Made by a program: the position numbers and the translations under genes. DNA of 5,703 bases, from NCBI GenBank assembly GCA_903854305.1, contig CAINWC010000359.1, positions 1-5,703 on the forward strand, in the 5' to 3' direction. Origin of the DNA: an uncultured Pseudomonadota bacterium. Its GTDB lineage: Bacteria > Pseudomonadota > Gammaproteobacteria > Burkholderiales > Methylophilaceae. Below the pieces are notes generated by a model, which made no database searches, was not told where the DNA came from, and worked only from the letters and a program-made list of their open reading frames with translations. Below, piece after piece: positions 1,246 through 5,703 of the stretch (within the stretch, counting starts at the first letter, position 1; each line of letters opens with the position of its first letter).

Positions 1246-1274
1246 TTGTATTTACAGCATTTTAATAATATAAT
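1246..1274 (+). promoter_or_regulatory. Candidate sigma70 promoter of the HTH-argA gene
   Basis: A perfect -10 hexamer TATAAT (1269-1274) lies 17 bp downstream of TTGTAT (1246-1251), which keeps the important TTG of the -35. Transcription would begin near 1281, about 41 nt before the ATG at 1322. The -35 overlaps a small dyad TGTA-TT-TACA (1247-1256), and the predicted start falls within the dyad at 1277-1289. No other promoter-like pair in the 1148-1321 gap is as good. Confidence 0.45.
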
Positions 1275-1276
1275 TT

Positions 1277-1289
1277 TGTAATTATTACA
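1277..1289. promoter_or_regulatory. Candidate operator: perfect dyad TGTAAT-T-ATTACA
   Basis: A perfect two-fold symmetric 13-mer lies immediately downstream of the predicted -10 and covers the predicted transcription start, where a repressor would block initiation. A second dyad with the same half-site core (TGTA/TACA, 1247-1256) covers the -35. The next gene starts with an XRE-type HTH, a family whose dimers commonly bind palindromes near their own promoters, so autoregulation is the natural hypothesis. The dyad is seen in the sequence; the binding protein is inferred. Confidence 0.38.
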
Positions 1290-1321: not shown

Positions 1322-2944
1322 ATGTCTCTGGGTTTATCCATAAGAAATAGGCGCAAGTCACTCAATATAACGCTGCAAACACTCGCTAACGCTATTGGTG
1401 CAGATGCCGGTAACTTGTCCCGCATTGAACGTGGCGAGCTTGGTGCATCTGAAACCATACTGCGCAAAATTGCTGAAGCCTTAAGCTGCACACCGGCCTA
1501 TCTTTACACGCAAAGCGATAACCCGAAAGCAACGCTAACAGCACAAGAAAGTCGTCAGCCTTATCTTGCTGGATTGCAGCAACCATTTGAAGCCACGAGC
1601 AAACCAAACCCCAAGGACTTCGTGCAATGGTTTAGGTCTGCCACACCGTACATTCATGCTTTCGGCGGACGCACCTTTGTGATTGCCTTTGGTGGCGAGG
1701 TCGTAGATCAGAAACAGTTCGTCGCTTTATCACACGACCTAAACTTACTAGCTAGCCTTGAAGTGCGGCTGGTATTGGTACACGGTGCGCGCCCACAAAT
1801 TGAAAAACGGTTACGCCGCGATAAACTCTCGCCTAAATTTGTAAATGGTTTGCGGGTGACTGACGATGCTGCAATGGAAGCGGTTAAAGAAGCCAATGGT
1901 GCGATTCGGGTAGAAATCGAAGCGCTTCTTTCTATGGGTTTAGTCAATTCACCGATGCAAGGCTCGGATATTCGCGTGGCGAGCGGCAACTTTGTGACCG
2001 CTAAACCAATGGGCGTGCGCGATGGCGTTGACTTACAACATACCGGTGAAGTGCGCAGAGTAGATGCCGTTGGCATACAAAAGCGTTTAGATGATGGTGA
2101 GTTAGTCATGCTGTCACCACTAGGCTATTCACCCACGGGCGAGGCCTTTAACCTGAGTTTAGAAGATGTTGCCGTGAGCGCTGCCATTGCACTGGATGCA
2201 GACAAGCTTATTTTCTTGATGGATTCTGAAGGGGTACATAATCTACGGGGTGAATTACTGCGTGAAATGACCGCCGAGAAAGCCAAAAACTTACTGAAAA
2301 ACATACAAAACCGCGAACAGGAAAACGAACAGGCCATTAATATTTCTGAAGATATTAATTATTACTTGCCAGCCGCAGTGCGTGCTTGTGAACATGGCGT
2401 AGCAAGAACGCATTTAATTAGTCGCCACATCGATGGCGCCATTATCCAAGAGTTATTCACGCTCAATGGTATCGGCACAATGGTGACTGAATTAAGCTTA
2501 GAAAGCATGCGCCAAGCCAATATTGATGATGTAGGCGGCATTTTGAAATTAATAGAACCATTAGAAGCTGAAGGCTTTTTAGTGCGGCGCGGGCGTGAAC
2601 ATATTGAAATGGAGATCAACCATTTTTATGTGATGGAGCATGGCAATCGCATTATTGGCTGCGCCGCACTCTACCCATTTATAGCAGAACGGACCGCTGA
2701 ATTTGCTTGCCTGGCGATTGACCCTGCATATAGAGGTGGTGGTCGTGGCGACAGATTGTTTTACTATTGTGCAGAACAAGCCAAAGAATTAGGCTTTAAA
2801 AGCTTATTTTGCCTCACCACGCGTACAGAACACTGGTTTTTAGAGCGCGGATTTGTCGAGCAGAATGTGGATAAATTACCAATGGAAAAACAAAAGCTTT
2901 ATAACTTTCAGCGTAAATCCAAGGTTTTTAGCAAAACGTTGTAA
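1322..2944 (+). CDS. argA: XRE-family helix-turn-helix / N-acetylglutamate synthase fusion (HTH-ArgA)
   Basis: The 540-residue protein joins a DNA-binding domain to the first arginine-biosynthesis enzyme (acetyl-CoA + glutamate to N-acetylglutamate). Residues 5-62 form an XRE HTH: LSIRNRRKSLNITLQTLANAIG, then the recognition region DAGNLSRIERGE and a final helix ending CTPAYLYTQ. A polar linker (63-98) follows. Residues 99 to about 370 are the amino-acid-kinase-fold domain with FVIAFGGE (119-126), LVHGARPQI (152-160), GLRVTD (176-181) and SPLGYSPTGEAFN (265-277); in this family it binds arginine. Residues 395-540 are the GNAT domain with YRGGGRGDRL (470-479, the acetyl-CoA loop), LTTRTEHWFLERGF (498-511) and LYNFQRKSKV (526-535). 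Classical ArgA is about 440 residues and lacks the HTH. ATG 1322 has AGG 6 nt upstream and the frame is closed by TAA at 1271. There is no internal Met before the ArgA part, but there is a GTG at codon 101. The order HTH-argA, argB suggests joint arginine control. Enzyme identity is very sure; DNA binding is inferred. Confidence 0.93.
   Translation: MSLGLSIRNRRKSLNITLQTLANAIGADAGNLSRIERGELGASETILRKIAEALSCTPAYLYTQSDNPKATLTAQESRQPYLAGLQQPFEATSKPNPKDFVQWFRSATPYIHAFGGRTFVIAFGGEVVDQKQFVALSHDLNLLASLEVRLVLVHGARPQIEKRLRRDKLSPKFVNGLRVTDDAAMEAVKEANGAIRVEIEALLSMGLVNSPMQGSDIRVASGNFVTAKPMGVRDGVDLQHTGEVRRVDAVGIQKRLDDGELVMLSPLGYSPTGEAFNLSLEDVAVSAAIALDADKLIFLMDSEGVHNLRGELLREMTAEKAKNLLKNIQNREQENEQAINISEDINYYLPAAVRACEHGVARTHLISRHIDGAIIQELFTLNGIGTMVTELSLESMRQANIDDVGGILKLIEPLEAEGFLVRRGREHIEMEINHFYVMEHGNRIIGCAALYPFIAERTAEFACLAIDPAYRGGGRGDRLFYYCAEQAKELGFKSLFCLTTRTEHWFLERGFVEQNVDKLPMEKQKLYNFQRKSKVFSKTL
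1613..1624 (+). promoter_or_regulatory. Possible internal translation start giving HTH-free ArgA
   Basis: AAGGA (1613-1617) precedes an in-frame GTG (1622-1624, Val101) by 4 nt. Starting there would give MQWFRSATPYIHAFGG and a 440-residue protein, close to the normal ArgA length and beginning just before the kinase-fold domain. The spacing is short and GTG is a weaker start, so use is uncertain. It may be a relic of the ancestral argA start. Confidence 0.28.
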
Positions 2945-3008: not shown

Positions 3009-3911
<903 letters not shown>

Positions 3912-5414: not shown

Positions 5415-5437
5415 TCAGCATCCATTTTACTTCAATA
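5405..5437. terminator. Weak inverted repeat across the convergent 3' ends
   Basis: TATTGAA (5405-5411) and TTCAATA (5431-5437) are exact reverse complements; GGG (5402-5404) and CCC (5441-5443) could extend the stem past a bulge. The 19-nt loop contains both stop codons of the converging genes. There is no T-run, the loop is large and the pairing is mostly A-T, so a bidirectional terminator role is only a possibility. Confidence 0.2.
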
Positions 5438-5703
5438 ACTCCCGATAAGCGTCCTCTCGAGAAGAAGAGTCGGCTTGCGCTATTTTGGCAAAAGCATCAT
5501 TGCCTAATTTTCGAACCTTGCGACGATTTGATTTCATATCAATCTCTCGCCACCCCATTAACACCAACCAATCCCATAAATCTTGCGCCATAGGTTCAGT
5601 TATTTTAATCACAAGCTGTTGCTTAATAATATGACTATCTAAAGCTGGGACTTTAACTGAACGCGTCAATCGGCGACGATTCTCAGCTGGCATTCCACAA
5701 AAA
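5427..5703 (-). CDS. Unrecognised basic protein, C-terminal part (possibly open at the window edge)
   Basis: The reading frame ends at TAA 5429-5427 and stays open to the window edge (…FCG before the first Met). If ATG 5693 is the start, the protein has 88 residues (MPAENRRRLTRSVK…), but that ATG has no clear Shine-Dalgarno site, so the gene may begin outside the window. The protein is highly basic and soluble: an NRRR-LTR cluster near its start, a predicted beta strand QQLVIKI, an aromatic patch LWDWLVLMGWREI (39-51 from the Met), then KSNRRKVRKLG and an acidic-polar tail helix SSSREDAYRELLK. No known motif was recognised. Its charge suggests nucleic-acid or phospholipid contact, but that is a guess. 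It converges on the DUF2788 gene with a 12-nt gap. Confidence 0.6.
   Translation of the reverse strand, partial: FCGMPAENRRRLTRSVKVPALDSHIIKQQLVIKITEPMAQDLWDWLVLMGWREIDMKSNRRKVRKLGNDAFAKIAQADSSSREDAYRELLK

What the first reader, a model, noticed from the sequence alone, without database searches (positions are those of the whole stretch)
1322..2944. N-acetylglutamate synthase fused to an XRE-type DNA-binding domain
Seen: one uninterrupted frame encodes a clean XRE HTH (residues 5-62), a linker, and a complete ArgA with both kinase-fold and GNAT domains. Known: bacterial ArgA is about 440 residues, is feedback-inhibited by arginine through the kinase-fold domain and forms ring-like oligomers; arginine genes are usually controlled by separate regulators such as ArgR. 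Inference: this protein could be a trigger enzyme, in which arginine binding changes DNA binding. A hexamer carrying six HTHs (three dimers) could bridge several operators. I know of no description of such a fusion.
Basis: partly seen in the sequence, partly recalled or inferred. Interest (0 to 1): 0.85.

Follow-up and report, generated by a model that had tools for sequence, protein, structure and literature searches.

The report
Arginine enzyme with built-in repressor
Across the bacterial family Methylophilaceae the first enzyme of arginine synthesis carries a fused helix-turn-helix domain, and it is predicted to switch off its own gene, likely when arginine is plentiful, by binding a conserved pair of DNA palindromes at its own predicted promoter.

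Summary
In detail: window 1322-2944 is one 540-aa frame with an XRE helix-turn-helix (residues 7-61), a disordered linker (71-94) and a complete N-acetylglutamate synthase. It is no misassembly: 141 of 150 genomes of the family have it, and it is absent from every listed match in other families of the order and class. Two 13-bp palindromes (TGTAA-N3-TTACA type) precede the gene, usually 30 bp apart; one covers the predicted -35 box, the other starts 2 bp after the -10 box. 75 of 106 upstreams hold a strong pair, against a mean of 0.4 in shuffles and 0 of 12 upstreams of unfused argA. In one complete genome the pair occurs once, at argA. In the most diverged genus 10 of 17 upstreams keep a pair, often one or two helical turns wider. 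Recognition helix and arginine-binding residues are conserved. Best reading: a trigger enzyme that represses its own gene, arginine being the likely corepressor. DNA binding and the arginine effect are inferred. I found no description in print.

The parts
1322..2944 (+). fusion gene: XRE HTH + N-acetylglutamate synthase (ArgA), 540 aa
1340..1504 (+). XRE-type helix-turn-helix, residues 7-61
   Evidence: Pfam HTH_3; five helices at pLDDT about 90
1406..1432 (+). recognition helix, residues 29-37; N31 L32 S33 E36 invariant in 43 aligned fused proteins
1532..1603 (+). disordered, poorly conserved linker, residues 71-94
   Evidence: pLDDT under 50; entropy 2.8 bits for residues 65-98
1610..1663 (+). 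N-terminal helix of ArgA, residues 97-114 (in the gonococcal enzyme this helix makes a hexamer interface and moves on arginine binding)
   Evidence: literature passages
1673..2422 (+). amino-acid-kinase-fold domain, residues 118-367
2204..2206 (+). K295, taken as counterpart of arginine-site lysine K201 of gonococcal NAGS from the alignment; invariant in 53 aligned proteins
2450..2479 (+). arginine-binding motif ELFTLNGIGT, residues 377-386
2585..2821 (+). GNAT acetyltransferase domain, residues 422-500 (Pfam core)
1247..1259 (.). predicted operator palindrome 1, TGTATTTACAGCA (degenerate copy, 13.7 bits), overlaps the -35 box
1277..1289 (.). predicted operator palindrome 2, TGTAATTATTACA (31.2 bits), predicted to cover the transcription start
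1246..1251 (+). predicted -35 box TTGTAT
1269..1274 (+). predicted -10 box TATAAT, 17 bp after the -35 box
3027..3911 (+). argB, acetylglutamate kinase, 82 bp downstream on the same strand; possibly co-transcribed

Best explanation
This is an N-acetylglutamate synthase with an XRE-type helix-turn-helix fused to its N terminus, and it likely represses its own gene by binding two palindromes that overlap its predicted promoter, with arginine as the likely corepressor. Shown: the fusion, its conservation across the family, the conserved recognition helix, the conserved arginine-binding residues, and the paired palindromes, one over the predicted -35 box and one just after the predicted -10 box. 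Inferred: pairs of HTHs, brought together by the two-fold N-terminal-helix interface of an ArgA hexamer, bind the two palindromes on roughly one face of the DNA and block RNA polymerase. Inferred: arginine, which in the gonococcal enzyme moves the helix to which the HTH is here tethered and contracts the hexamer, favours the DNA-bound form. One protein would then close both the enzymatic and the transcriptional feedback loop at the first step of arginine synthesis. Downstream argB, where it is adjacent, would be affected only if it shares the transcript.
For: (1) Fusion shown in 141 of 150 family genomes; on a tree of the ArgA part 83 fused rows and 12 unfused rows separate with one change, support 100 (the diverged genus g15 was not in this tree). 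(2) N31, L32, S33 and E36 invariant and R34, I35, R37, G38 in 41-42 of 43 fused proteins down to 40% identity; residues 27-38 have mean entropy 0.47 bits against 2.79 for the linker. (3) Pair of 13-bp palindromes before the gene: start-to-start distance 30 bp in 58 of 84 loci, 29 or 31 in 13 more. Pair score 18 of 20 or better in 75 of 106 upstreams, shuffles mean 0.4 and maximum 2, unfused 0 of 12. 59 of 80 family loci have one at the gene, against 17 elsewhere in 956,740 bases of the same loci. (4) In a complete same-genus genome (2,547,570 bases) the only pair is at argA, and the two argA sites rank 1 and 3 of the weight-matrix scan. (5) In 58 aligned blocks with 30-bp spacing the best -10-like hexamer of three spacings tried matches TATAAT at 4-6 of 6 in all 58 and lies 17 bp after the -35 box in 54. 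(6) Other spacings are near whole helical turns: 41-42 bp in five diverged genomes, 50 or 52 bp in four others. (7) Arginine motif E-L-F-T-x-x-G-x-G-T in 50 of 53 aligned proteins, all 43 fused ones included; K295 and E377 in 53 of 53 (motif from PMC4490483, passages). (8) The model fits arginine-bound gonococcal NAGS 3D2P, TM 0.89 by target length, better than native 2R8V, 0.64; this concerns fold and domain orientation of a predicted model and is weak evidence on ligand.
Against: No binding, expression or arginine experiment exists here. The HTH-operator link is by position and co-occurrence. HTH residues 29 and 40 change together with operator letters, but only 2-3 independent contrasts exist for residue 40 and 4-5 for residue 29, and the tests are not significant; GC content differs too (0.46 and 0.505). 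In the diverged genus g15, 7 of 17 upstreams read show the HTH gene without a clear pair (L244, L245, L246, L257, L259, L260, L263). In Methylophilus the right half-sites are degraded. Site 1 in the window is itself degenerate. At a laxer pair score (16 of 20) shuffles reach a mean of 18.7 of 106 and 1 of 12 unfused upstreams qualifies. The 12 unfused controls come from three other families, with base composition not matched. In this AT-rich stretch a -10-like hexamer is easy to find. NLSRIERG is partly a general XRE consensus (recalled). Loci are related, so counts are not independent.
Confidence: 0.62

Rival explanations
1. Autoregulation without arginine: the HTH binds the paired operator and represses argA in proportion to enzyme amount (or to substrate or acetyl-CoA occupancy), while arginine acts only on catalysis.
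For: The disordered linker (residues 71-94) could uncouple the HTH from the enzyme. All evidence for the operator fits this as well.
Against: The HTH is tethered to the helix that moves on arginine binding in gonococcal NAGS (passages), and the arginine motif is present in all 43 fused proteins aligned.
Confidence: 0.2
2. The fusion activates rather than represses its own promoter, for example when arginine is absent.
For: The palindromes lie at the predicted promoter; XRE proteins can activate (recalled).
Against: Site 1 overlaps the predicted -35 box and site 2 begins 2 bp after the -10 box, the geometry expected of a blocking repressor. Activators mostly bind upstream of or at the edge of the -35 box (recalled).
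Confidence: 0.06
3. The palindromes belong to a different regulator; the fused HTH serves assembly or protein contacts.
For: No direct link between this HTH and these sites has been measured. Seven of 17 upstreams in genus g15 lack a clear pair although the HTH is kept.
Against: The pair occurs once in a complete genome, at the fusion gene, and not before unfused argA (0 of 12 at 17 of 20 or better). The recognition helix is the best-conserved part of the HTH. The pair stays with argA in loci where rsmE lies over 1 kb away (L023-L026) and where argB lies over 2 kb away (L041, L054).
Confidence: 0.07
4. Artefact or relic: sequencing error, misassembly or a decaying HTH.
For: One genome has a frame break (G071) and one a run of N between HTH and ArgA (G033); the window's assembly is fragmented (445 contigs).
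Against: 141 of 150 family genomes have it, isolates included, with conserved helix 3.
Confidence: 0.01

Closest known systems
Trifunctional NadR of Enterobacterales (N-terminal HTH + NMN adenylyltransferase + ribosylnicotinamide kinase)
   Same: Biosynthetic enzyme with an N-terminal HTH; restricted to one lineage while most relatives lack the HTH and are plain enzymes; repressor in the characterised case (PMC12421817, passages seen).
   Different: Other enzyme, pathway and ligand. NadR represses several NAD genes, whereas here the paired site was found only at the protein's own gene. No homology outside the HTH class is claimed.
BzdR of Azoarcus (XRE HTH + linker + shikimate-kinase-like domain)
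   Same: XRE HTH joined by a linker to an enzyme-derived domain in a betaproteobacterium; repressor (PMC3602430, passages seen). Our HTH matches NCBIfam PRK08154, an anaerobic benzoate regulator, at 5.5e-5, far below its cut-off (22.5 of 204 bits).
   Different: The paper states that loss of enzyme activity was essential for BzdR. Here acetyltransferase and arginine-site residues are conserved, so it looks like a natural enzyme-plus-regulator stage of the kind that paper built artificially.
Bacterial-type N-acetylglutamate synthase, Neisseria gonorrhoeae (2R8V, 3D2P)
   Same: AAK + GNAT domains, arginine motif, 302-bit match over residues 96-530.
   Different: No match to the HTH or linker part.
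ArgR/AhrC arginine repressor
   Same: Expected role: arginine-responsive repression of arginine synthesis.
   Different: Different protein family; no ArgR domain over cut-off in 150 family and 120 order genomes.

Membership tests
Bacterial-type ArgA (NAGS) | AAK domain followed by GNAT domain, matched by the NCBIfam equivalog over cut-off | tested here: met
   PRK05279 688 bits (cut-off 344), TIGR01890 578 bits (cut-off 203)
Bacterial-type ArgA (NAGS) | arginine-binding motif E-(L/I)-(F/M)-(T/S)-x-x-G-x-G-T plus key Lys and Glu | tested here: met
   ELFTLNGIGT 377-386, K295, E377 (motif from PMC4490483, passages)
Bacterial-type ArgA (NAGS) | acetyltransferase activity and arginine inhibition | not testable with these tools
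   only residue conservation seen
XRE/Cro-type HTH proteins | HTH_3 match over gathering score and helical fold | tested here: met
   PF01381 35 bits, cut-off 23; five helices
XRE/Cro-type HTH proteins | binds a palindromic operator as a dimer | not testable with these tools
   conserved paired palindromes are consistent
Trigger enzymes with own DNA-binding domain (NadR type) | active enzyme and sequence-specific DNA-binding domain in one chain | tested here: inconclusive
   architecture and conserved residues met; neither activity assayed
Trigger enzymes with own DNA-binding domain (NadR type) | target gene in the same pathway | tested here: inconclusive
   paired candidate operator only at its own gene in one complete genome; none at argC, argF, argG, carA; binding not shown
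ArgR/AhrC | Arg_repressor domain PF01316 | tested here: not met
   not among the window protein's Pfam matches; none over cut-off in the genomes searched

The most novel reading that the evidence does not exclude
A natural all-in-one feedback device: the first enzyme of arginine synthesis is its own arginine-sensing repressor. Its hexamer grips two helically phased operators across its promoter, so that one arginine-driven change of shape shuts off both catalysis and transcription. It has been kept across a whole bacterial family, including genomes of about 1.3 Mb.
Probability: 0.45. Interest if true: 0.86.

Novelty: new variant of a known kind. Interest (0 to 1): 0.76.

Why it matters
It would show enzyme control and gene control by the same end product united in one polypeptide at the first step of a core pathway, in a family whose order shows no ArgR over cut-off in the genomes searched. 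It supplies a natural, still catalytically conserved counterpart to the enzyme-to-regulator intermediates that were built artificially for BzdR. Spacing near whole helical turns makes a concrete prediction about how a ring-shaped enzyme meets DNA. The names that sources give to these proteins ('amino-acid N-acetyltransferase') hide the HTH.

Tried and rejected
ArgR replacement: rejected as a simple account, because ArgR is missing over cut-off from the order at large too (one and two weak matches below cut-off). Regulon of arginine genes: a weight-matrix scan of 1.5 kb before argC, argF, argG and carA in six genomes found nothing above 7.8 bits; the argA sites score 31.1 and 26.5, 30.4 and 26.5, 31.6 and 30.1 in three same-genus genomes, and 31.2 and 13.7 in the window; argD, argH and argJ were not searched. 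The strict palindrome inside the metX/metW genes of G078 was put down to chance: by base composition I expect about 4 strict matches and one search found 1. An XRE donor gene: the HTH alone found 13 proteins, 61-137 aa, mostly on short contigs, which look like pieces of the same fusion; no donor identified. HTH-operator coevolution: same direction, not significant. tRNA and Rfam scans were empty. The consensus promoter scan did not report the promoter proposed here, as its -35 box matches the consensus at only 3 of 6. The HTH residues for the 6 outgroup N-termini were judged by eye, without a profile scan.

Unequal evidence: the 106 upstreams include near relatives, and they leave out five diverged genomes that my motif rule missed (L241, L253-L256); these were read later and do carry the pair. 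One search ended with an error in its last print loop; the counts quoted were printed before it. The regular expression is strict and would miss a degenerate pair such as the window's own. The row lists were cut by the tool, so statements on other families cover listed rows only. The tree is a quick one, lacks genus g15, and the tool warned that the long branch of L099, L103 and L106 meets the outgroup.

Full report
What is there. Window 1322-2944 is one frame of 540 aa. Pfam finds HTH_3 at 7-61, AA_kinase at 118-367 and Acetyltransf_1 at 422-500. NCBIfam names residues 94-540 amino-acid N-acetyltransferase well over cut-off. The AlphaFold model, from 53 aligned sequences, gives a five-helix HTH at pLDDT about 90, a linker (71-94) below 50, the N-terminal helix of ArgA (97-114), and the AAK and GNAT folds. 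Foldseek's best two matches are gonococcal NAGS structures; the arginine-bound one (3D2P) fits better than the native one, TM by target 0.89 against 0.64. Neighbours: rsmE upstream (413-1147), argB 82 bp downstream, then a HAD pyrimidine 5'-nucleotidase and slmA.

Real and conserved. Eighty loci of named records carry the protein, many in Methylotenera, Methylophilus, Methylovorus, Methylobacillus and Novimethylophilus, so the family is taken as Methylophilaceae (the tool's family code f1 is unnamed, but for example G117 and L025, M. mobilis 13, agree in coordinates). Of 150 family genomes, 130 align from residue 1-8, four have no match, and 16 start later, are fragments or match argB only. 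I read 11 of these 16 and all have the HTH, one of them (G033) with a run of N between HTH and ArgA; five were not examined. In the order (300 genomes) and class (321 genomes), every listed match outside the family begins at query residue 65 or later, that is, without the HTH; the lists were cut by the tool. I looked at six outgroup N-termini by eye and saw no HTH. On a quick tree of the ArgA part, 83 fused rows and 12 unfused rows separate with one change, support 100; genus g15 was not in it. The simplest account is one fusion at the base of the family and vertical descent.

The HTH is maintained. In 43 fused proteins down to 40% identity, N31, L32, S33 and E36 are invariant and R34, I35, R37 and G38 are kept in 41-42. 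Mean entropy is 0.47 bits for residues 27-38 and 2.79 for the linker. Part of NLSRIERG is a general XRE consensus (recalled), so this shows a maintained HTH rather than a particular specificity.

The sensor is intact. PMC4490483 (passages seen) gives the arginine-site motif E-(L/I)-(F/M)-(T/S)-X-X-G-X-G-T, key residues K201 and E270 of the gonococcal enzyme, and states that arginine moves the N-terminal helix and contracts the hexamer by about 20 A along its three-fold axis. The window protein has ELFTLNGIGT (377-386), K295 and E377. K and E are kept in 53 of 53 aligned proteins and the motif in 50 of 53, all 43 fused ones included. The HTH is tethered through the linker to that same helix. 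The paper also places interlaced N-terminal helices at a two-fold interface, which could bring two HTHs together; that last step is inference.

The operator. Upstream of the gene lie two 13-bp palindromes of type TGTAA-N3-TTACA (TGCGT-N3-ACGCA in Methylobacillus-like genomes). The best pair is 30 bp apart, start to start, in 58 of 84 loci, and 29 or 31 in 13 more. Scored 0-20 for the pair at 29-31 bp, 75 of 106 distinct upstreams reach 18; dinucleotide shuffles give a mean of 0.4 and a maximum of 2; 12 upstreams of unfused argA give none. At 16 the figures are 100 of 106, 18.7 and 1 of 12. In the 80 named loci, 59 have a pair of 18 or better within 130 bp of the gene, and 17 such pairs lie elsewhere in 956,740 bases. 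The pair stays with argA where rsmE lies over 1 kb away (L023-L026) and where argB lies over 2 kb away (L041, L054).

Promoter geometry. In 58 blocks with 30-bp spacing, site 1 contains a TTG(C/T)AT-like -35 box in 57 (L070 differs), the best -10-like hexamer of three spacings tried matches TATAAT at 4-6 of 6 in all 58 and lies 17 bp away in 54, and site 2 starts 2 bp after that place. In the window: TTGTAT 1246-1251, TATAAT 1269-1274, site 1 1247-1259, site 2 1277-1289. A protein on both sites would cover the -35 box and the predicted start. That is the layout of a repressor. No start site has been mapped.

One target. I took the whole single contig of a same-genus genome (G078, 2,547,570 bases). 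The loose half-site pattern occurs 255 times singly, which would give about 0.13 pairs by chance over the five spacings tried (my arithmetic); exactly one pair was found, before argA. The weight matrix ranks the two argA sites first and third; second is a site inside the metX/metW genes, where chance is enough. No site over 7.8 bits lies within 1.5 kb before argC, argF, argG or carA in six genomes. So the regulator looks dedicated to its own gene.

Helical phasing. Besides 29-31 bp, five genomes of the diverged genus g15 hold pairs 41-42 bp apart, and four others of it 50 or 52 bp apart. Spacings near 3, 4 and 5 turns fit sites bound on about the same face by one oligomer. Against this, of 17 g15 upstreams read, 10 have a pair at 30, 41-42 or 50-52 bp and 7 do not although the HTH is kept (L244, L245, L246, L257, L259, L260, L263), and Methylophilus has degraded right half-sites. 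HTH residues 29 and 40 vary with the operator's third base (A29: C in 20% of half-sites, 55 loci; S29: 77%, 15 loci). Where contrasts exist they go the same way or do not differ, but they are few, 2-3 for residue 40 and 4-5 for residue 29, so this is a lead.

ArgR. No ArgR domain reached cut-off in 150 family genomes or in 120 of the order, while it rang in nine control genomes, eight over cut-off. So ArgR loss did not accompany the fusion.

What it works like and what it is. It is a bacterial-type ArgA by profile, fold and arginine site, with an XRE HTH. It would work like trifunctional NadR, an N-terminal HTH on biosynthetic domains restricted to one order (PMC12421817, passages), and resembles the intermediates proposed for BzdR (PMC3602430, passages), except that here the enzyme residues are kept. 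Six searches of the open paper library listed no paper that describes it (listings only, showing 12 of 336); subscription papers are mostly not held.

Verdict. Fusion: certain. Autorepression through the paired palindromes: about 0.8. Arginine as corepressor on top of that: about 0.62 overall. Undecided: binding, sign, ligand and stoichiometry.

Noticed in passing
L010 (JAIPCR010000004.1): Record titled Sulfuritalea sp., but its fused ArgA lies inside the Methylotenera group of the tree; the bin is probably mislabelled or mixed.
   Followed up: no
G071:C27:305220-306781: Fusion gene broken by a frame change and a stop inside the AAK domain; a sequencing error or a real lesion.
   Followed up: no
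L244, L245, L246, L257, L259, L260, L263 (genus g15): HTH-ArgA kept, but no clear palindrome pair in 130 bp upstream: operator lost, or changed beyond recognition.
   Followed up: partly
L241, L243, L253, L254, L258, L261 (upstream of the gene): By eye, the coding end of the upstream gene, apparently rsmE, runs into operator site 1, so that its stop codon and the operator share bases.
   Followed up: no
G078:C1:2429034-2429088: Near-perfect single site TGTAAATATTACA at the metX/metW junction with TGCAATTATTGCA 42 bp on; probably chance, but the spacing is that of the diverged argA operators.
   Followed up: partly
P0126 (320-kb contig): A 103-aa protein resembling the HTH half alone; possibly a frame-broken or split copy of the fusion.
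   Followed up: no
window 5427-5693, minus strand: 88-aa frame without any Pfam or NCBIfam match.
   Followed up: no
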